Positions 65-38,948 of a stretch of DNA of 38,948 nt are shown here, in pieces; position 1 is the stretch's first letter; the number at the start of each line of letters is the position of its first letter. The notes beneath the pieces were generated by a model that ran no database searches, was not told the DNA's origin, and saw only the letters and a list, made by a program, of their open reading frames with translations. Source of the stretch: Thiotrichaceae bacterium (GTDB lineage: Bacteria; Pseudomonadota; Gammaproteobacteria; Beggiatoales; Beggiatoaceae); assembly GCA_029939505.1 (NCBI GenBank), contig JAOZSV010000014.1, forward strand, positions 1 to 38,948. The letters run 5' to 3'. The position numbers and the translations under genes were made by a program.

Positions 65-97
65 AAACCTCTGAGGTTTCCAAAACCTCAGAGGTTT
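65..97. repeat. Palindrome of the ACCTCTGAGG family
   Basis: The arms AAACCTCTGAGGTTT and AAACCTCAGAGGTTT flank a CCA loop, and a run of T follows on the plus strand, so the unit could also end transcription entering from the left. The same core palindrome sits inside the coding sequence of the kinase gene at 22239-22269, which shows that this is a dispersed repeat and not only a local terminator. Confidence 0.85.
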
Positions 98-2650: not shown

Positions 2651-5600
2651 CTATAAAGCAGTCTGCGTTGCTAAATTAATTTTATCCTTGAGTTGCTGAT
2701 TTTGAGTTTCTAATTCCACATTTCTCGTCTGAACTTGTTGTTGTAAACAATAAAGCGTTAAATGGGTTCTTATGCGTGACAGAACTTCTTCTGGTTCAAA
2801 AGGTTTAGTCACGTAATCGACTGCCCCTAATTGAAATCCTTTGATTTTATCATCAGTATCGGAAAGTGCAGTCATAAAAATCACCGGAATATCCTGAGTT
2901 TTTGTATTTTCTTTGAGTCGCCGACAAACTTCAAAACCATTCATTCCCGGCATCATCACATCTAACAAAATTAAATGGGGGTTTCTCAGTATAACCATTT
3001 GAAGGGCTTTTTCTCCATCTTTGGCAATTAACACTTTAAAGTTGTGTTTTTTGAGAATATTTAACAATAGCTTTAGATTAATCGGCATATCATCAACAAC
3101 AAGAATGACAAGTTGTTTTGGCATGATGAAGCCTAAGACTTTTCGACAACTTTCGACGTAAATCTGCGCGGCTTTATCATCACTGTTCACTTGCAAGACT
3201 TTTTCAAACGTTTTTTGGGCTAGTTCAAATTGTCCGTCATGAAAATAGTGAAAACCTTGTTCAAAATCAGCTAAAGTCGTTGATTTAAGTTCAACTTGAA
3301 CCGATTCTTGGGCATCAAAAACTTCATAAATTGTTACCGGTTCAGTTTTACCTTTAACAGTTACCCGGTCAATGATGCGAATTTTGTATTGACTTGGTTT
3401 TGTTAATTGCTGATAGGTATTTTCGGTGATTAATAAAGGTGTATGGTATGTTTTTGTCAAACCCTCAATGCGAGAAGCTAAGTTGACGGCATCAGAAATC
3501 ACGGTGCTATCCATGCGCTTTTGTCCCCCAACCGTACCCAACATCAACTTTCCAGTATGAAGCCCAATACCAATGCGTATTGTGTCAAATTCAGTATATT
3601 GCAATATTTGGTTATATTTTTCCAGTGTTTTTAACATCGCAATTGCGCCTTTGATGGCATTATCGACACTGGTCGGAAATAAAGCCATAATGGCATCACC
3701 GATGTATTTATCAATAAACCCTTGATATTGTTTAATAATTGGAGCCATTTGGCCTAAGTAAGCATTGATATAATCAAAATTGTCTTGCGGGGTCATTTTT
3801 TCTGAAATTGAGGTAAAATCACGAATATCAGAAAATAGAATAGTCATTTCTTTTTCAACCTGATCTCCTAATTGAATATCAATAATACTTTCCTTATTTA
3901 GAAATTTAAGAAATTCATGCGGCACAAAACGACTATATGCTCTATTTAACTCATGTAATTTTAAGTGCGTTTTCACTCTGGCTAATAATTCACTCTTAGA
4001 AATGGGTTTAGTTAAATAGTCGTTTGCACCCACTTCAAAACCGGTTACTATATCAGAGATTTGATTTTTAGCCGTCAACATTAAAATGGGCAATTCATTG
4101 GCTGAAAAACGCTTGCGAATTTTTTGTACTGCTTCATAACCCGTCATCTGCGGCATCATCACATCTAATAAAACTAAATCTAGTTTAGTCCCTTCTTCAA
4201 TTAATCTGCAAGCCTCTATCCCAGAGCTGGCTTGTATGATATTGTAATTATGTAATGATAAATGATTGATTAAAACTTGAATATTAACGGGTTCATCATC
4301 AACTATTAAAATGGTAAATGAGCCTTCATTATGAACGGGCATAATGACTTCAACCGGTAATAAAGAGAATTCTTTGGCGTTGTCAGAGTGTAGTGGTTTT
4401 GCTAACGATTTAGCGACAGGCAAAGTGAATATAAACTGTGAACCCACTCCAATTTGTGATTTAACCCAAATTTCGCCACCATGCAATTGAACTAACTGCT
4501 TAGTCATCGCTAAACCTAAACCTGTGCCACCATATTTTCTCGCTATTGAACCTTCCGCTTGTTCAAAGGATTCAAATATGCGGCTGAATTTATTTTCTTC
4601 AATACCAATGCCAGTATCAGAAATAATGACTTCAAAATGCTGATTCACCACTTGAGCAGAGACTTCGATTTGTCCAATTTCCGTGAATTTAATCGCGTTG
4701 CCAAGCAGATTATGCAATATTTGTTGCAAACGGTTTTCGTCTGCATGGGCGGGCGGACAATCCGACGAAATCGCATTAATCAATTGCACCGATTTATTCC
4801 GAATGAGTGATTGGCTTAGTGTGATCACAATTTCAACGATTTCCCGTAATCCAATCGGTTTCAGTTGCAACTCCAATTCTTGATGTCTTAGTTTAGAAAA
4901 GTCCAGAATATCATTCACTAAGTTAGCCAAGCGTTGTCCACTTCCCATAATCATGGCGAGATTCGCCTTGGTTTTGTCAGGTAATTCGCCGGTGGCACCG
5001 TCAATTAAGGATTCAGTCAGACCAATAATCCCATTAAGCGGGGTGCGAAGTTCATGGGAAGTATTGGCTAAAAATTCATCTTTGAGTTTATCCGATTCTT
5101 GCAAACGTTCATTTAATTTTTGTAGGCGTTCATTAAAAGTGCGGGTATATTTTAATTTTCTTTGTTGTATGATGAAGAAAGTGATAATGCTACCTAAAAT
5201 AGCCAAGACATAAAGGATATAAGCCCACCAAGTTTGCCACCAAGGGGGCAATATGATGATTTGGATTGAGGTGCTGGTTTCATTCCAAAAACCGTCATTG
5301 TTAGAGGCTTTCACTCGAAAGGTATATTTGCCTGTATCTAAATTGGTATAGGTGGCAAACCGCCGATGACTATCAACATAAGTCCATTCTTTATCAAAGC
5401 CTTCCATCTTATAGGCATATTGGTTTTTTGCAGAAGCGCGATAATTTAAAGCAGCAAATTCAAAACTAAACACAAATTGCTTATAAGACAGCGTTATCTT
5501 TTCGGCGAAATTAATATGTTTTTGCAAAGGAGAATTTTTACCAATAGATACCGGTTTGTTAAACAGTTGAAAATCAGTCAAAAATACCGGCGGAATGGTT

Positions 5601-8023: not shown

Positions 8024-8108
8024 TTCGAGGTTTTAGTTTTTTTTTCAAAAAAACTAAAACCTCGATTCGAGGTTTTAGTTTTTTTTTCAAAAAAACTAAA
8101 ACCTCGAA
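8024..8108. repeat. Two family A palindromes in perfect tandem
   Basis: Two identical 42-bp units, each TTCGAGGTTTTAG, T-run, C, A-run, CTAAAACCTCGA, abut exactly at 8065/8066. A related degenerate hairpin (CCGAGTTTTTTC ... AAACTCAAACATCGAATTC) lies at 8165-8200, close to the end of gspK. Confidence 0.9.
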
Positions 8109-9227: not shown

Positions 9228-9415
9228 AGTACAACGGATTAGGGAATAAAACGGATGGATTCAAGGTGAAAGTTTCGGAGACACTGCTTTTTTTAAGTCC
9301 TCCTCCTCTGATTATCAATTCGTTATATTCTAAAATCCATTCGAGGCTAAAGTTTTTTCTTTAAAACAACTTTAGCCTCGAATGTACTTACGTTTCCCTT
9401 AATCCGTTTAATCCT
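9228..9415. repeat. Family B element interrupted by a family A palindrome
   Basis: The left arm AGTACAACGGATTAGGGAATAAAACGG begins at 9228 and a degenerate right arm TTAATCCGTTTAATCC ends near 9415. Within it, at 9340-9382, lies TTCGAGGCTAAAG ... CTTTAGCCTCGAA, a family A unit with one mismatch in the A-run. This fills most of the gap before ccmD. Confidence 0.7.
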
Positions 9416-15214: not shown

Positions 15215-15259
15215 TTTCGAGGCTTACCGTTTTTTAAAGAAAAACGGTAAGCCTCGAAA
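15215..15259. repeat. Family A palindrome after the BCCT gene
   Basis: TTTCGAGGCTTACCGTTTTT pairs with AAAAACGGTAAGCCTCGAAA. The variable word is CTTACC, different from other copies but matched by GGTAAG in the other arm. Confidence 0.9.
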
Positions 15260-16780: not shown

Positions 16781-16979
16781 GATAAATCTATTCGAGGTTT
16801 CAGTTTTTCTTCAAAAAACGAAAGCCTCGAATGCTAACAGCTAAAACAGGCTAAAGCGTTAAGGGCGAATACGCAGGTTCGCCCCTACAATTACAGGGCG
16901 ATTTATTAGGTAAATGTCGGGTTACGTTATCACGCGACGCTTGATAAGCTAACCCAACCTACTATACTGAGTAGTTACA
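16762..16979. mobile_element. Family C element, 218 bp, with nested palindromes
   Basis: The ends TGTAACTACTCAG (16762-16774) and CTGAGTAGTTACA (16967-16979) are perfect inverted repeats. Inside are a family A unit (16791-16831), a hairpin of the GGCGAATACGCAGGTTCGCC type (16862-16880), and one arm of family F (GTCGGGTTACGTTATCACG...). No open frame of note. It overlaps the end of the Fic gene. Confidence 0.75.
16791..16831. repeat. Family A palindrome, imperfect
   Basis: The ends TTCGAGG and CCTCGAA are kept, but the variable words do not match (TTTCAG against CGAAAG), so this copy has decayed or is a recombinant of two types. Confidence 0.75.
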
Positions 16980-20248: not shown

Positions 20249-20479
20249 TTAGTACAGCGGATTTTAGAATACAACGGATTTAAAAAAAATGTAACTACTC
20301 AGGGCAACCACAAGGGATTGCCCCTACATCAGAAGATTTTCGTCACTCAACATAAGAATATTGTTGTAGGGGCAATCCTTTATGGTTGCCCTGAGTAGTT
20401 ACAAAAAAATGTTGTTTAACATTAACACTATGATTTTATTATATTTAATCCGTTTATTTCTCAAATCCGTTGTACTCAG
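20249..20479. repeat. Family B element split by a family C element
   Basis: The outer arms TAGTACAGCGGATTTTAGAA (20249 on) and TCAAATCCGTTGTACTCA (to 20479) match the uninterrupted unit at 12207-12308. In its middle, after AAAAAAAATG, comes the perfect family C element (20290-20403), and then CAAAAAAATG and the rest of the unit (TTAACACTATGATTTTATTA). This gives the order of insertion: C came after B. Confidence 0.8.
20290..20403. mobile_element. Intact 114-bp family C element
   Basis: The terminal repeats are TGTAACTACTCAGGGCAACC and its complement, continuing as AAGGGATTGCCCCTACA, about 37 bp each with few mismatches. It has no coding capacity and looks like a MITE. AAAAAAATG occurs on both sides of TAACTACTCAG...CTGAGTAGTTA and may be a target duplication. 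Confidence 0.75.
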
Positions 20480-20517: not shown

Positions 20518-23484
20518 ATGTCACCATCAAGCCTCCTACAATCCTTATTCGGCTCACTACTCGACAGCCCGGCTGTCGTCGAAATCGCTTCTCAGGCAGG
20601 TAAAAATGCCCTTTCCCTGATTCAGAAACATTTTACCTACAGTGCTTATGAAATCAGCAAAACCTATCAAGAGAGTTATGGCTATGCCCTGGGCGCAATT
20701 CGCGTTGGAGTCGCTGCACCTGATAAAACGTTCGCTTTTACTGATAAAATTTTTCAGTCGAAAATTACCCGCGAATTTGCGGCGCAAATCGAAAAACATT
20801 ACTTTCAGCCTTTTGCTGAAAAACGCGATGCTGAAGATTTATCCCATTTTAGAAAACAACTCGTTGATAATATTAACGTTTTATCGAAACGCGCTGAAAA
20901 ATTCCAATTTGAGAAAGTCACTGAAGAAGATTTAGTTGCCCTGATTAATCCTCAAAAGACAATTGCCATTACTGATTTAGTCATTGAGCAAATCGCGCCT
21001 TTGGATGATCTCGTTGCTGATTTTTTTCGTTACGAAGGGCTTTTAGGAAACGCGCTACTTTTTTTCTTTCGGGAATGCCTTCGTCGAGATGAACGGCTGA
21101 AAACGACTCAAGCCCTGTTGCAACGTGAGGGCTTATGTGTAACAGTGCAAGATATCCAAAGTGAATTGACTGCCATTGAAGGGCGTATTATCGAAGCCAT
21201 TAAAAAGAAATCACCGATTTTGGAGTTGGCGCAACGCCAGAATCAATTGATAGAAGTTGAAACGGCTTGGCAAACGCGCCATGCTCAATTAATCCAATTT
21301 AACCAGTGTTTTGAAAATCAATTAGGTGAATTGCTCTCCTGGGCAGAAAATATTTATTTCGCCCTTGAAAATCTCCAAGAGCAGGTTGAGGAAACTAATG
21401 AAAATGTGAAAGAAACTAAGAGTTTAGTCGAAGAGGTTTTGGATAAAGTCACGGCTCTCTTGGCGCGTCAAAATGTTTCTGCCCAAATTAAGCCCCGTGA
21501 TGAATTTACGCATCATAATAGCAGAAGTTTGGAATTGATTCAGGAGGTGTTTAGCCAATTAAAACTGGTTTCTTCAAAAACGCCTGAATATTATCGCGCC
21601 TCTATTTTAGTTGGTAGTGCTTTATCTTCAAGCGGGGATTTGGAACGCGCTTCACGGTTATTTCAGCAAACCATTGAAAATTCTCAGGATTCTGCGGAAA
21701 AGGCATTGGCGCATTTTAATTTATTTCAAGTGCAATTGCGGAATAAAGCGTTTGGCGATGCTCTGAAAAATTTAGAAACCGCGATTGAAATTGATTTTCA
21801 ACAATATTCCCTCCATGATACCCATAGATATCCAATGAAACGGATTTTAGGGGCGGGCGGTATGGGCTGCGTGTTTTTATGTGGATATCGCTTGAAAAAA
21901 AATAAGCGTGTGGCAGTGAAATGTTTTTGGGAAAATCGCAAAGGCTCACGCGATGAGATTTTTCGTGAACCCCTATTAATGGCTGAGATTGCGGGCGAAT
22001 GGGTGCCTGAGCCGTTGGATTATGGGTATTTTGATAATGCTCAACAAGCGCGTGCCTTTTTTGTCACAGAATATATTGATGATGCGATAGATGGGGAAGC
22101 GTGGCTAGAAAAAAATGGGCATCTCAACGTCAAAACTGCCCTTCCCGTTGCCATCCAAATTGCTCAGGGCTTACAAATTGCTCATCAAGCGGGGATTTTT
22201 CATTTGAATTTAAAGCCCGCGAATATTTTGCTAAAAAAGACCTCTGAGGTTTCCAAAACCTCAGAGGTCTCAATTTCGGTTAAAATCATCGACTTTGGTT
22301 TATCACAAGTGGCGAATTCTTTGCGGGATGAGGTGGCAGGGCAGAAAACCCGCACGGGTTTGACGACTTTTGGGCAAGCGATATTTGGTACTTTAGATTA
22401 TGCCCCGCCAGAGCAACAGGGCTATATCCAATTTGGTGAACCGAGTGCGAAAAGCGATATTTTTGCGTTTGGAAAAACGCTCTATCGTCTGCTCACGGGT
22501 GAAATGCCTTTGGAAGTGGAGCCAGAAGCTTTAGAAGATGCCCCGAATTGGTATAAGTTACTTTATAGTTGTACGCGCACTAATCCCGCAAAACGCCCTC
22601 AATCTGTAGAGGAATTGATACGTCTTTTAAAGGCGATTGAAACGGTTTCGGAGACGAAAACGAGTGAAACCCAACAGGGCAAACTTTTCCAATTTGAAAT
22701 CGTCACCGTTAATAATAAAGGCAAAATCACTCACCGCGAAGAAAAACAAGCCAATTATCAAACTGAAGACTTGGGCAATGGCGTAACGCTGGAAATGGTT
22801 TATATCCCAGGGGGAACGTTTAAGATGGGTTCACCTGAAACTGAAAAAAGAAGAGATAGCGATGAAAGCCCCCAGCATCAAGTAACGGTTCAACCCTTCT
22901 TTATGGCTAAATATCCCATCACCCAAGCCCAATGGCAAGCGGTGATGGGCAAGAATCCCTCCTATTTTAAAGGTGAAAAACGCCCAGTAGAAACAGTTTC
23001 GTGGGATTATGCTGTCAAATTCTGTCAGCGATTATCTGAAAAAACAGGTAAAGACTATCGCTTACCCAGTGAAGCGGAATGGGAATATGCCTGTCGTGCG
23101 GGAACAACGACGCCCTTTTACTTTGGGGAAACGATAACGACGGATTTGGCGAACTATGATGGTGATTATACCTACGCCTCTGAACCAGAAGGGGTTTATC
23201 GTGGAGAAACAACCGATGTGGGTAATTTTCCGCCGAATAGTTTTGGCTTGTACGATATGCACGGTAATGTTTGGGAATGGTGCGCTGATAATTGGCATAA
23301 TAATTATAAGGGTGCGCCGAGTGATGGAAGTGTCTGGGGGAAAGGGAATAGTGGGCAGCCTGTGATTCGCGGTGGCTCGTGGTTCAACGAACCGTGGAAC
23401 GTGCGAGCAGCGTTCCGTAGCTGGAACTCGCATGACTACCGCTACGGCAGCGTGGGGTTTCGCCTCGCCAGGATAACTCTTTGA
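20518..23484 (+). CDS. Protein kinase fused to a formylglycine-generating-enzyme-like domain
   Basis: This 988-residue protein has three parts. Residues 1-330 are helical with a coiled coil near 280-315; 340-425 look like TPR helices. A Ser/Thr kinase domain spans about 437-705, with the glycine loop GAGGMGCVF, VAVK, and DFG at 592-594. The catalytic loop reads H562-L-N564-L-K566-P-A-N569, so the usual catalytic Asp of HRD is Asn. Eleven residues (575-585, TSEVSKTSEVS), encoded by a palindromic repeat, sit between this loop and the DFG strand. Residues about 755-985 form an FGE-sulfatase/C-type-lectin-fold domain (GGTFKMGSPE, YRLPSEAEWEYACRAG, GLYDMHGNVWEWCAD, RGGSW ... GFRLA). The catalytic Cys pair of true FGE is not seen, so it is more likely a binding domain. 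The last ~100 bp resemble a retroelement-diversified region. No signal peptide. Confidence 0.9.
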   Translation: MSPSSLLQSLFGSLLDSPAVVEIASQAGKNALSLIQKHFTYSAYEISKTYQESYGYALGAIRVGVAAPDKTFAFTDKIFQSKITREFAAQIEKHYFQPFAEKRDAEDLSHFRKQLVDNINVLSKRAEKFQFEKVTEEDLVALINPQKTIAITDLVIEQIAPLDDLVADFFRYEGLLGNALLFFFRECLRRDERLKTTQALLQREGLCVTVQDIQSELTAIEGRIIEAIKKKSPILELAQRQNQLIEVETAWQTRHAQLIQFNQCFENQLGELLSWAENIYFALENLQEQVEETNENVKETKSLVEEVLDKVTALLARQNVSAQIKPRDEFTHHNSRSLELIQEVFSQLKLVSSKTPEYYRASILVGSALSSSGDLERASRLFQQTIENSQDSAEKALAHFNLFQVQLRNKAFGDALKNLETAIEIDFQQYSLHDTHRYPMKRILGAGGMGCVFLCGYRLKKNKRVAVKCFWENRKGSRDEIFREPLLMAEIAGEWVPEPLDYGYFDNAQQARAFFVTEYIDDAIDGEAWLEKNGHLNVKTALPVAIQIAQGLQIAHQAGIFHLNLKPANILLKKTSEVSKTSEVSISVKIIDFGLSQVANSLRDEVAGQKTRTGLTTFGQAIFGTLDYAPPEQQGYIQFGEPSAKSDIFAFGKTLYRLLTGEMPLEVEPEALEDAPNWYKLLYSCTRTNPAKRPQSVEELIRLLKAIETVSETKTSETQQGKLFQFEIVTVNNKGKITHREEKQANYQTEDLGNGVTLEMVYIPGGTFKMGSPETEKRRDSDESPQHQVTVQPFFMAKYPITQAQWQAVMGKNPSYFKGEKRPVETVSWDYAVKFCQRLSEKTGKDYRLPSEAEWEYACRAGTTTPFYFGETITTDLANYDGDYTYASEPEGVYRGETTDVGNFPPNSFGLYDMHGNVWEWCADNWHNNYKGAPSDGSVWGKGNSGQPVIRGGSWFNEPWNVRAAFRSWNSHDYRYGSVGFRLARITL
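22239..22269. repeat. Palindrome inserted in frame in the kinase domain
   Basis: The perfect 14-bp arms GACCTCTGAGGTTT and AAACCTCAGAGGTC flank CCA. It is the same palindrome as at 65-97. It encodes a near-duplicate of TSEVSK and leaves the frame intact. Confidence 0.92.
23368..23475 (+). other. Candidate variable region of a diversity-generating retroelement target
   Basis: The end of the C-type-lectin-fold domain reads RGGSWFNEPWNVRAAFRSWN then SHDYRYGSVGFRLA. The 102 bp from 23371 are 64% GC against an AT-rich gene. The changeable codons are TTC, TGG, AGC, TCG, TAC, GGC, as expected if AAC or AGG codons of a template were changed at A, while framework codons (GTGCGAGCAGCG, GTGGGGTTTCGCCTCGCC) stay constant. 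The GC-rich end is followed by a hairpin (23521-23533). No template repeat or reverse transcriptase is in the window, so diversification would have to act in trans. Confidence 0.5.
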
Positions 23485-23543: not shown

Positions 23544-23591
23544 AGGGGTATTTCCGTATTTGTTGTAGGGTTATTGATTGGTTTAATTATT

Positions 23592-23866
23592 CAGTACAGC
23601 AGGATGAGTACAGCGGATTTCGGATTGAGTACAACAGGATGAGTACAGCGGATTTGAGAATACAACGGATTTTTTTTCAATCTGTTGCATTCCGAAATCC
23701 GCTGTACTCAACCTCAAATCAATCCGTTGCATTCTCAAATCCGCTGTACTCATCCCGCTGTACTGATCATTAATCCGTTACATTCCGAAATCCGCTGTAC
23801 TCATCCAGCTGTACTCACCCCATTGTACTCAACCCCATTGTACTCACCCCATTGTACTCAACCTCT
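23592..23866. repeat. Dense array of family B half-sites
   Basis: Many copies of GAGTACAGCGGATTT, GAGTACAACAGGAT and, in the opposite sense, AAATCCGCTGTACTCA, AATCCGTTGCATTC and CCCATTGTACTCA are packed together. Left units point one way and right units the other, so the array can fold on itself. Open frames here are artefacts of the repeat. Confidence 0.85.
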
Positions 23867-23881
23867 ATATTGATTACACTA

Positions 23882-24697
23882 ATGAACAAACAACATACCC
23901 ATTCAAATCTGATACACGAAGAACTTAGCTACGAGGTCAAAAAAATACTATTTGACATTTATAATCAACTTGGCCCTCAACTCCCAGAAAAGCTATACCA
24001 AAGAGCGGTTAATCGTGGACTAAAAGAACAAGGTATTACTTACGAACAAGAAAAAAAGTTTGAAGTGATTTATCGGGAAAAATCCGCAGGGACTTACTAC
24101 CTTGATCACTGGATTGAAAATGGCAAACTCCTCCTAGAACTCAAAGTCGCCCCTAAAATTATGCCTATTCACCAAGCCCAAACCATTTCTTACCTCAAAG
24201 TGAGCGATGTTGATTTAGGCATTATTGTTAATTTTGGTGCAACCTCTTTAGAAACCAAACGATTACCTAATTTTATACGGGATAAAACGGTTGACTTTCA
24301 ATGGCAACCCCAACCATTAACTGGAGATATTTTATATCCGGTTCTTAGCCAGAATATTCTTAAAGCCTTGCACCGAGTCCATTTAACATTAGGTCCCGGC
24401 TTTATCCATCGTGTTTATCGGCAAGCGATTCGGATTGAATTACAACAACAAGATATAGGTTATGAATCTATTCGCAGAATCCAATTTTATTATAAGAATT
24501 ATTATCTTGGCGAACAAAAAGTTCAAATACTCAAAGTAGAGAATAAAATATTATTGGGTGTTTTTGCCCTTGAAAAGGTTGATGAGGTAATGGAAGTAGT
24601 CATGAAAGCACGGTTGAAGCGTTTTGAGATCAAATTAGGACTTTTGGCGAATTTTTATGGAAGACGATTAATGCTAAAATGGGTATTGAATACATAA
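23882..24697 (+). CDS. Tandem GxxExxY-type protein
   Basis: GxxExxY proteins have a PD-(D/E)XK nuclease-like fold and unknown function, and are common in repeat-rich genomes. This one is 271 residues, about twice the usual length, because the domain is duplicated. Copy 1 (12-130) has GPQLPEKLYQRAV, GITYEQEKKFEVIY, an Asp (D75) and E86-L-K88 (LLELKV), followed by HQAQTISYLK and GIIVNFGA. Copy 2 (155-271) has GPGFIHRVYRQAI and GYESIRRIQFYY but GVFAL in place of E-L-K, and LGLLANFYGRRL at its end, so its active site is lost. The ATG at 23882 is chosen because the ten upstream codons are repeat DNA; no ribosome site is clear. The stop overlaps the start of a family B repeat. Confidence 0.85.
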   Translation: MNKQHTHSNLIHEELSYEVKKILFDIYNQLGPQLPEKLYQRAVNRGLKEQGITYEQEKKFEVIYREKSAGTYYLDHWIENGKLLLELKVAPKIMPIHQAQTISYLKVSDVDLGIIVNFGATSLETKRLPNFIRDKTVDFQWQPQPLTGDILYPVLSQNILKALHRVHLTLGPGFIHRVYRQAIRIELQQQDIGYESIRRIQFYYKNYYLGEQKVQILKVENKILLGVFALEKVDEVMEVVMKARLKRFEIKLGLLANFYGRRLMLKWVLNT

Positions 24698-24912
24698 GTA
24701 CAACGGATTTGGGAATAGAACGGATTAAGGATTGAGTACAACGGATTTAGGAATGCAACTGATTGAAAAAAATCCGTTCTATTCTCAAATCCGTTGTACT
24801 CATCCCGCTGTACTCAATTTGCCGCTGCACCAAAAAGACGGTGCAACGTCTACATGGTTCAGCCTTGAAATCAATTTCAAGGCTAACAACGGCTGAGTAC
24901 ACAATATAAAAT
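24695..24912. repeat. Family B hairpin and neighbouring repeats
   Basis: AAGTACAACGGATTTGGGAA to TCAAATCCGTTGTACTCA (24695-24802) is a full family B hairpin that begins in the stop codon of the GxxExxY gene. Then come CCGCTGTACTCA, GCCGCTGCACC...GGTGCAACG, and a CCTTGAAATCAATTTCAAGG hairpin. Confidence 0.8.
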
Positions 24913-25671: not shown

Positions 25672-25716
25672 TTTCGAGGCGAAAGTTTTTTCTTTAAAAA
25701 AACTTTCGCCTCGAAA
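25672..25716. repeat. Family A palindrome
   Basis: TTTCGAGGCGAAAGTTTTTT pairs with AAAAAACTTTCGCCTCGAAA. It lies between the broken gene and the ribbon-helix-helix gene. The same variable word CGAAAG occurs at 34047-34081. Confidence 0.92.
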
Positions 25717-26376: not shown

Positions 26377-26536
26377 GGTGGGCATAAGTCGTTGAATCAG
26401 GCCTGACAGGTTTCCAAAACCTGTCAGGTCTAGCCATATAGCCATATCGGGTGGGCATAAGTCGTTGAATCAGACCTGACAGGTTTCCAAAACCTGTCAG
26501 GTCTAGCCATATAGCCATGTAGGGTGAGCATAAGTC
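26377..26536. repeat. 73-bp direct repeat, two full copies and a partial third
   Basis: GGTGGGCATAAGTCGTTGAA starts at 26377 and again at 26450, with GGTGAGCATAAGTC at 26523; the period is 73 bp throughout. Each unit holds the palindrome CCTGACAGGTTTCCAAAACC TGTCAGG, related in its loop to the one at 65-97. The stretch 26537-26640 carries a GTTGCAC-type dispersed repeat ending CCTACATGGCT. Confidence 0.9.
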
Positions 26537-30142: not shown

Positions 30143-30577
30143 GATGATCAAGTTTTTATAAGAATAACGACAAGGATTGTATATAAGAAGGGATTAAAAT
30201 TGTTTGGGTTTTTAAAATCTTTTTTTTTGAGCTTAGAAATCCGATTTTTTCAAAAATCGGATTTCTTAAAGCTGAGACAATCCTTGTACTCGATCATCAA
30301 GTTTTTCGTTTTTCAAGAATAACTACAAGGATTATATATAAGAAGGGATGAGATCGTAGTTGTACTTGCTTTAAATCCTTTTGCTGAGACAATTTTTATC
30401 GTTGGTTGAAATGAAATCCCTTCGCTAATACAATCCTTGTAGTTAATGTGTTTTTAAAATCCTTTTTTATATACAATCCTTGTAGTTAATATGTTTTTAA
30501 AATCCTTTCGAGGCTAAAGTTTTTTCTTTAAAAAAAACTTTAGCCTCGAATCTTATATACAATCCTTGTAGTTAATA
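30143..30577. repeat. Family D cluster with nested palindromes
   Basis: ATGATCAAGTTTTT, ACAAGGATTGTATATAAGAA and the reverse words ACAATCCTTGTA, TACTCGATCATCAAG alternate several times, with ATATACAATCCTTGTAGTTAA repeated at about 30469, 30553 on the right. A family H stem (30230-30273) and a family A stem (30507-30550, TTCGAGGCTAAAG ... CTTTAGCCTCGAA) are embedded. No gene is seen in 30046-30631. Confidence 0.8.
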
Positions 30578-34017: not shown

Positions 34018-34362
34018 AAACCGAGTTTTTTGAAAAAACTCAAGACGAAAGTTTTTTCTTTAAAAAAACTTTCGCCTCGAATTCTAAATACTCGATCATC
34101 AAGTTTTTGATGTAATTTGGCTTGGCCTCAATCAATTTTAAAATTTTAAAAAAAGCAAGTTATTGATTTTTAATATAATTTTAAAAAATTAAAATATTTT
34201 TAATGAATCAAAAATTGAGGTCTTTTAAAATCAATGATTTACAAAAAACTTGTTCGCTTGAATAAAATACCTGAAAATTTATCATTCGGTACTGACAACG
34301 TTTTTTAAAATCAGTTTTATTCTAAAATCCGTTGTACTCATTATTATTTGTTGTACTCATGA
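34018..34362. repeat. Chimeric family H/A hairpins and a partial family B
   Basis: AGAAACCGAGTTTTTTGAAA AAACTC (34018-34043) is followed directly by GACGAAAG, T-run, A-run, CTTTCGCCTCGAATTC (34045-34084), a family A unit whose left end is lost. ACTCGATCATCAAG (family D word) follows. At 34297-34362 stand AAATCCGTTGTACTCA and TTGTTGTACTCA of family B. The centre (34110-34290) is very AT-rich and holds no recognised feature. Confidence 0.7.
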
Positions 34363-36389: not shown

Positions 36390-36770
36390 TATGGTAGGTC
36401 GGGTTAGCTTATCAAGCGTCGCGTGATAACGTAACCCGACATTTACCTAATAAATCGTATGGGTAGGTCGGGTTAGCTTATCAAGCGTCGCTTGATAACG
36501 TAACCCGACATTTACGAACCTATCCCACTATTCGTTTTTGAGCTTAGAAATCCGATTTTTGGAAAAAATCGGATTTCTTAAACCTCGTTTTTTGGTCAAA
36601 AACCCAACTATTTTTATTCATTATTCTGCATTTTTGAATAGTGGGATAGGTTCACCTAAGAAATCGTATGGTGTCGGGTTACGGCGCCATCTAACCCGAC
36701 CTACTTAGCTAAGAAATCGCCCGGTGTCGGGTTACGTTTTTTTGCGGCGCAAAAAAATCTAACCCGACCT
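36390..36770. repeat. Family F units with nested palindromes
   Basis: GTAGGTCGGGTTAGCTTATC ... GATAACGTAACCCGAC occurs twice in tandem (36391-36446 and 36464-36509), then further GTGTCGGGTTA / TAACCCGACCTAC hairpins follow (36671-36772). Between them GAACCTATCCCACTATTC (36516-36533) and its complement (36636-36653) enclose a family H stem (36541-36582). Confidence 0.85.
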
Positions 36771-36783
36771 ACTTAGCTTTTCT

Positions 36784-38539: not shown

Positions 38540-38948
38540 TAGCGGGGCAAAATGTGTGCAACGGTATAAGAGATCAACCATAAGACGTTGCACGAAAAAA
38601 TGTGGTCCACCCTACATGGCTTGAAATTCGTTTCGCCATTCATAAGAAATGCGTACTCTTAGAGGAGTTTGAATTCGTTTATTTCGTCAATTCGTTGTAC
38701 TCAATTAACCCTCGATTTAAAGAAACCACTGCCTTCCCCCCAAAAAGTAGCAAGCGTGGGCAACGTCTTTTTGGTGCAACGGCACCCACTTTTTTCTGAT
38801 TTCCATGCGTCTGCATCACTGCCATTAAGTTTTCGAGTCGAGGCTAACGTTTTTTTAAAGAAAAAACGTTAGCCTCGACTTGAGTTTTTTTTCAAAAAAA
38901 CTCAAACCTCGAAAGGAATATTTATTGGAATCCAAACCGTCAGATTTG
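38540..38948. repeat. Mixed dispersed repeats at the right edge, with nested family A units
   Basis: GTGTGCAACGGTATAAGAGATC and GACGTTGCACGAAAA to CCTACATGGCT (38552-38621) repeat the word order seen before hicA. Partial family B words follow (TTCGTCAATTCGTTGTACTC). At 38832-38914 a family A unit (TCGAGGCTAACG ... CGTTAGCCTCGA) sits inside another (TTTCGAG ... CTTGAG, T-run, A-run, CTCAAACCTCGAAA). The window ends in a cut copy of GGAATCCAAACCGTCAGATTTG. No gene is seen. Confidence 0.8.

What the first reader, a model, noticed from the sequence alone, without database searches (positions are those of the whole stretch)
22239..22269. A different palindrome is inserted in frame between the catalytic loop and DFG of a protein kinase
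Seen: GACCTCTGAGGTTT/CCA/AAACCTCAGAGGTC encodes TSEVSK-TSEVS, exactly between NILLKK and VKIIDFG, and the same palindrome stands in intergenic DNA at 65-97. A second repeat family therefore also enters genes without breaking them. The site is a surface turn in kinase folds, where extra residues are tolerated.
Basis: partly seen in the sequence, partly recalled or inferred. Interest (0 to 1): 0.8.

Follow-up and report, generated by a model that had tools for sequence, protein, structure and literature searches.

The report
Mobile DNA hairpin inside kinase gene
A 33-base DNA hairpin that is scattered hundreds of times through this sulfur-bacterium genome, and that sits beside a transposase gene of its own in many unrelated bacteria, has landed in frame in a surface loop of a protein kinase and in a few other genes, lengthening proteins without breaking them.

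Summary
A perfect 33-bp palindrome (22238-22270) lies in frame between the catalytic loop and DFG of a TPR-kinase-FGE protein, and a sister copy stands at 65-97. The genome (5.58 Mb, Beggiatoaceae) holds about 308 copies; the reversed control gives none. A same-genus orthologue has the empty site (8-residue loop; net +21 bp here). One kinase paralogue carries the same palindrome in the same turn, and a relative carries half of it. PurL, a single-copy purine-synthesis enzyme, carries two copies in frame, so 'enters genes without breaking them' holds. This kinase is poor evidence for it: its catalytic Asp is Asn. The change was also a local replacement, not a clean insertion.

The palindrome is a REP/REPIN-like element (AGACCTSNSAGGTTTNNNAAACCTSNSAGGTCT) shared by Beggiatoaceae, Bacteroidota, Chloroflexota and others. 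A clade of REP-associated tyrosine transposases (RAYTs) is flanked on both sides by it in 18 of 29 loci (0 of 8 other RAYTs), including on one side in this genome, with the same core. Intragenic in-frame REPs are known; the variant (no GTAG/CGTC foot, cross-phylum sequence, core matched to the RAYT) looks new. Mobilisation is inferred, not shown.

The parts
22238..22270 (+). REP/REPIN-like palindrome, CTG/CAG core: two inverted 11-bp half sites (ACCTCTGAGGT, ACCTCAGAGGT) 7 bp apart; perfect 15-bp arms, loop CCA
22240..22272 (+). codons for the added peptide TSEVSKTSEVS, predicted as an extension of the beta7-beta8 hairpin
22225..22278 (+). whole block that differs from the empty orthologue (54 nt here, 33 nt there; net +21)
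20518..23484 (+). host gene, 988 aa: TPR-like, protein kinase (PF00069), FGE-sulfatase domain (PF03781)
21811..22641 (+). kinase domain used for homologue searches, alignment and fold
22207..22209 (+). codon AAT (Asn) where 15 of 16 aligned homologues have the catalytic-loop Asp
22291..22299 (+). DFG motif, intact, directly after the insert and beta8
65..97 (+). intergenic sister copy, followed by a T-run (intrinsic-terminator-like on the + strand)
26399..26431 (+). intergenic family copy with GAC/GTC core (one end imperfect)
26472..26504 (+). intergenic family copy with GAC/GTC core, perfect arms

Best explanation
The palindrome is a short mobile REP/REPIN-like element: two inverted half sites ACCTSNSAGGT that fold into one hairpin. 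It is most likely multiplied by a REP-associated tyrosine transposase (RAYT, HuH/Y1 nuclease) that acts on the single-stranded hairpin, probably during lagging-strand replication. In this genome a RAYT of this kind, cut by the contig end, followed by and containing the same CTG/CAG-core palindromes, is on contig C474. Copies settle mainly downstream of genes, where some can act as transcription terminators. Rarely one lands inside a gene; it survives if the net length is a multiple of three, the frame is one without a stop (TSEVxKTSEV for this core) and the site is a surface loop. In the window it enlarged the beta7-beta8 turn of a kinase domain by seven residues net. Shown: copy number, dispersal, empty and filled orthologues, same-loop recurrence, in-frame coding, RAYT flanking and core matching. 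Inferred: that the RAYT moves the element, the single-strand route, and tolerance of the enlarged loop.
For: 308 copies, reversed control 0; general motif 445 copies in G000, 265 and 93 in congeners, 111 in G004, none in many others. Empty site in the same-genus orthologue (kinase domain 94% aa, gene about 90% DNA identity: NLLLIQTKKDIAVKIIDFG). Same loop filled in paralogue C249 and by a half element in G009. Other in-frame genes: PurL, two kinase-AAA proteins, a CHAT protein, a GAF/histidine kinase, a RAYT. PurL filled in G000 (two copies) and G002 (one), empty in G001, G004 and others. RAYTs of one clade flanked on both sides by family palindromes in 18 of 29 non-redundant loci found by protein search, 21 with at least one side; other RAYTs 0 of 8. 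Core next to each RAYT: G000 CAG, G024-C180 CCG (that genome's main core), G004 GAC. [quoted passage not shown] Arms co-vary: 129 of 136 public copies have exactly complementary cores, shuffled mean 26. Papers: RAYTs flanked by REPs and in-frame REPs within tnpA-REP genes (PMC6006769); intragenic REPs (PMC3733652).
Against: No transposition was observed. The G000 RAYT of this clade lies at a contig edge, so its completeness is unknown. The GTAG or CGTC foot that guides known REP cleavage is not enriched beside the palindromes (GTAG 7 of 115 against 3 of 115 background; public 4 of 98 against 4 of 98), except around the G004/G049 RAYTs. No target-site duplication or clean insertion was seen; intergenic regions differ wholesale between G000 and G002, so recombination or gene conversion may move copies. 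G002 has 265 copies without a detected RAYT of this clade, though its assembly is in 910 contigs.
Confidence: 0.77

Rival explanations
1. The palindromes are bidirectional intrinsic terminators kept by selection; the in-gene copies are accidental look-alikes or gene fusions.
For: Intergenic copies lie near gene 3' ends (public loci: median 25 bp to 3' ends, 70 bp to 5' ends) and are rare between divergent genes (5 of 68 against 41 of 255 gaps). The copy at 65-97 is terminator-like.
Against: Sequence, not only structure, is conserved across phyla; copies flank RAYT genes on both sides and sit inside them; the kinase copy has no T-run; 3' bias is also typical of REPs (PMC3733652).
Confidence: 0.1
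2. The kinase copy came by gene conversion from another kinase gene that already carried it (such as C249 or an unseen paralogue), not by insertion of the element.
For: About 20 nt left of the palindrome also differ from the orthologue (NILLKK against NLLLIQ) while the rest of the gene is closely similar; paralogue C249 carries the palindrome in the same turn.
Against: Flanks, spacer and position (two codons apart) differ between C86 and C249; no donor with the window's flanks was found among homologues. A first insertion into a kinase would still be needed.
Confidence: 0.25
3. Copies spread by recombination, slippage or hairpin-templated repair in arrays, without a transposase.
For: Regular arrays (45-56 bp periods); G002 PurL shows a 15-bp unit tripled next to the copy; wholesale intergenic turnover.
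Against: Does not explain single copies in hundreds of unrelated places, nor the RAYT association and core matching.
Confidence: 0.13

Closest known systems
REP sequences / REPINs with RAYT (TnpA-REP) transposases (PMC2817692, PMC3116915, PMC6006769)
   Same: 20-65 nt hairpins in hundreds of copies, singles, doublets and arrays, mostly 3' of genes; RAYT gene flanked by copies; in-frame copies inside RAYT genes.
   Different: No consistent GTAG/GTGG foot; the hairpin sequence is shared across phyla, whereas PMC6006769 calls REPs species-specific; RAYT scores 45-57 bits against the NCBIfam RAYT cut-off of 80.
Intragenic GTAG/CGTC REPs (PMC3733652)
   Same: In-frame palindromes inside unrelated genes, sometimes at the same site in related genes (recB of two Xanthomonas species).
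   Different: Different sequence, no tag; here empty and filled orthologues and the linked RAYT are in hand.
Rickettsia palindromic elements (RPE) (PMC10969869)
   Same: Palindromes inserted in frame in protein genes, in places that proteins tolerate.
   Different: RPEs described there are about 150 bp; this element is 33 bp and has a linked RAYT.
MITEs and unexplained palindromic repeats of Thiomargarita (PMC4853749)
   Same: Related Beggiatoaceae rich in short palindromic repeats.
   Different: The MITEs described there are longer, with direct repeats, and disrupt genes; several of its palindromic consensus sequences were left unidentified.

Membership tests
REP / RAYT (REPtron) | short hairpin repeat, 20-65 nt, in high copy and dispersed | tested here: met
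   33 bp, 308-445 copies
REP / RAYT (REPtron) | RAYT (HuH, Y1_Tnp) gene flanked by copies of the same family | tested here: met
   18 of 29 clade loci on both sides, 0 of 8 control RAYTs; in the own genome on C474 downstream and inside only, because the contig ends within the gene
REP / RAYT (REPtron) | GTAG/GTGG (or CGTC) tetranucleotide at the hairpin foot | tested here: not met
   GTAG 7/115 vs 3/115 and 4/98 vs 4/98 background; CGTC 1/115 vs 2/115 and 5/98 vs 4/98. Seen only beside the G004/G049 RAYTs. So not filed as a GTAG or CGTC REP
REP / RAYT (REPtron) | mainly intergenic, tandem or convergent gaps, near 3' ends | tested here: met
REP / RAYT (REPtron) | RAYT cleaves and rejoins the hairpin | not testable with these tools
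   needs biochemistry
RAYT subclass 2.4 of PMC6006769 | in-frame REP inside tnpA-REP between HuH and Y | tested here: met
RAYT subclass 2.4 of PMC6006769 | NH[IFV]H, WQ, YIxNNP, HuH-Y median distance 88 | tested here: not met
   NHFH but FQ/FE, YIHxNP, distance 61-74, SS motif; motifs mix those of subclasses 2.1 and 2.6
Rickettsia palindromic element | about 150-bp palindromic element coding in frame | tested here: not met
   33 bp
MITE | target-site duplication around terminal inverted repeats | tested here: inconclusive
   no clean empty/filled pair with a duplication; flanks differ too much
intrinsic terminator | GC hairpin followed by T-run | tested here: not met
   the kinase copy has no T-run; the copy at 65-97 does
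active protein kinase | VAIK Lys, catalytic-loop Asp, DFG Asp | tested here: not met
   Lys and DFG kept, catalytic-loop Asp is Asn
Rfam RNA families | match at gathering score | tested here: not met
   0 matches in the window

The most novel reading that the evidence does not exclude
A RAYT-hairpin system spread over several phyla keeps one hairpin frame but changes a three-base core together with the transposase, so each lineage amplifies its own core variant; because the hairpin is open in at least one frame it repeatedly adds short beta-hairpin peptides to permissive surface loops, acting as a natural loop-insertion mutator.
Probability: 0.35. Interest if true: 0.75.

Novelty: new variant of a known kind. 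Interest (0 to 1): 0.56.

Why it matters
In-frame mobile hairpins are a simple way for bacterial proteins to gain loop segments, but good before/after pairs are few. Here close relatives give an empty and a filled kinase and an empty, singly and doubly filled PurL, and a candidate transposase with its own core sequence is named. That makes two open questions directly testable: whether RAYTs move REPs, and what sets their specificity.

Tried and rejected
Other RAYTs of the genome (PF01797) were checked first and none had the palindrome alongside; the link appeared only through a weakly scoring RAYT in G004. GTAG/CGTC tags were tested and rejected. Text search for the sequence in papers gave only unrelated hits. 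Rfam gave nothing. A target-site duplication could not be shown. Long ORFs made of array copies in the PLRF frame (L220; L231 5100-5289) were judged not to be genes. The RAYT subclass was not assigned because motifs disagree and no reference set was at hand.

Full report
CHECK. The palindrome is present as described. ORF 20518-23484 encodes 988 aa with TPR-like, protein kinase and FGE-sulfatase domains. The perfect palindrome spans 22238-22270, 15-bp arms and a CCA loop, -24.1 kcal/mol as RNA, z -6.9. The second copy is at 65-97. In shuffles of the window the pattern never appears. The own genome, G000 (5.58 Mb, 497 contigs, window = contig C86), has 308 matches at up to three mismatches; the pattern read backwards has none. 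The family name Beggiatoaceae is inferred from the named carriers and the relatives; the genome itself is unnamed.

KINASE FAMILY. Five related kinase genes exist in G000. Between the catalytic loop and VKIIDFG the plain members have eight residues (KQIDSGII, LRQDNRVM, KQTDTGLM); the window copy has KKTSEVSKTSEVSIS and C249 has QRRKTSEVLKTSEVS, both seven longer. The same-genus orthologue G002:C70 has IQTKKDIA and is otherwise 94% identical in the kinase domain. The DNA alignment shows 54 nt here against 33 nt there, and the 15 nt left of the palindrome also differ. So the event was a local replacement with net +21 bp, in frame. In G009 the same turn holds AAACCTGACAGGTTT, one half site with another core, read as KPDRF. 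Three genes of one family therefore carry this element in the same turn. Positions, spacers and flanks differ, which favours separate events; conversion between paralogues is not excluded.

STRUCTURE AND ACTIVITY. AlphaFold2 on a 16-sequence alignment (mean pLDDT 81) places the insert as a lengthened beta-hairpin, strands 139-147 and 152-159 with a turn at 148-151, block pLDDT 73-84. But the window protein reads HLNLKPAN where 15 of 16 aligned proteins, the G002 orthologue and C249 included, read HLDLKPAN. From general knowledge of kinases this Asp is the catalytic base; the window protein is probably a weak or dead kinase. C249 keeps Asp and DFG with the same insert.

OTHER GENES. In sampled contigs (0.98 Mb, biased to copy-rich ones) 172 copies form 85 sites; about eight sites lie in clear genes, all in an open frame, although ORFs of at least 200 aa cover about 66% of the sample. 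They are the two kinases, PurL (C490), two kinase-AAA proteins with the insert at the same linker (C151, C243; 66% identical to each other, so possibly one ancestral event), a CHAT-domain protein (C166), a GAF/histidine kinase near a contig end (C328) and a RAYT (C474). The CTG/CAG- and CCG-core copies among them all use the TSEV frame; the second open frame (PLRF) occurs only in dubious ORFs. PurL is the clearest case: one match per genome in G000 and G002; G000 has two copies (NQTSEVLETSEVFRNQTSEVLETSEVFR), G002 one (plus a tripled LNQTS unit), G001, G004 and others none, always just before ILMKVETHNHP. In other phyla the element lies in frame in a SpoIIE-domain protein (L146) and a DNA-methylase-like protein (L180).

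WHAT THE ELEMENT IS. The general motif ACCTSNSAGGTTTNNNAAACCTSNSAGGT occurs 445 times in G000, 265 in G002, 93 in G001, 111 in G004 and is absent from many family members. The outer bases are mostly AG...CT in other organisms; beyond them nothing is conserved. The three-base core varies but the two arms agree in 129 of 136 public copies, against 26 expected on shuffling. G000 is dominated by CTG/CAG, G024 by CCG/CGG, G004 by GAC/GTC in the copies listed.

TRANSPOSASE LINK. A Y1_Tnp ORF in G004 (193 aa, motif NHFH) has family palindromes within 30 bp of both its start and its stop. A protein search with it over 45 genomes gave loci L304-L333; by my count, leaving out the duplicate L307, 18 of 29 have palindromes on both sides and 21 on at least one, within 350 bp; eight RAYTs of other clades from the Beggiatoaceae genomes have none. 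The genomes were chosen because they hold the palindrome, but the RAYT places were found by protein alone. In G000 the RAYT on C474, cut by the contig end, is followed by an array of CTG/CAG palindromes and carries one in frame (EQTSEVFETSEV). G024 has one RAYT beside CCG copies, its main core, and another beside GAC/GCC copies. A further RAYT in G000 (C146) is surrounded by a different palindrome, AGAAATCCGATTT...AAATCGGATTTCT. This is the REPtron arrangement, one transposase with its own repeat (PMC6006769).

COMPARISON. Intragenic in-frame REPs are known (PMC3733652), in-frame REPs inside RAYT genes are known for subclass 2.4 (PMC6006769), and RPEs do the same on a larger scale in Rickettsia (PMC10969869). 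The family differs from described REPs in lacking the GTAG or CGTC foot and in a hairpin sequence shared across phyla. The RAYT motifs (NHFH, FQ/FE, YIHxNP, HuH-Y distance 61-74, SS motif) do not fit one published subclass, and NCBIfam's RAYT model is matched below its cut-off. Subclass 2.6 of PMC6006769 is said to have 'atypical' hairpins, mostly in Bacteroidetes; whether some of these are this family could not be checked, because the figures and supplements are not held.

VERDICT. It is a new variant of a known kind. Mobilisation, core specificity and tolerance in the protein are inferred and need experiments.

Noticed in passing
22207-22209: Catalytic-loop Asp codon GAT is AAT (Asn) in the window kinase only; possible pseudokinase.
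   Followed up: partly
L334 (G000:C146) 2899-3907: A second RAYT in this genome is surrounded by another palindrome family, AGAAATCCGATTT...AAATCGGATTTCT; other repeat families of the genome may have their own RAYTs too.
   Followed up: partly
L031 1390-1687 and 7340-7540; L048 9900-10050, against G002 loci L256 and L261: Intergenic regions between near-identical genes differ wholesale between two congeners, filled with different repeat families.
   Followed up: partly
L293 (G002 PurL): A 15-bp unit (LNQTS) is tripled beside the palindrome copy, so the site keeps changing length in frame.
   Followed up: no
window 8025-8108, 9341-9382, 15217-15258, 25674-25715, 30508-30549, 34040-34081, 38838-38879: Another palindrome family (TCGAGG...CCTCGA, about 42 nt) with about ten copies in the window; its transposase was not identified.
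   Followed up: no
window 20251-20292, 23589-23863, 24697-24819: Dispersed AGTACA(A/G)CGGATTT / AATCCGTTGTACTCA repeats clustered around the kinase gene and its neighbours.
   Followed up: no
window 16911-16964, 36393-36515, 36725-36773: Repeats of the form GTCGGGTTA...TAACCCGAC.
   Followed up: no
L146 1-972: In a Bacteroidia genome a SpoIIE-domain protein carries two family copies in frame.
   Followed up: partly
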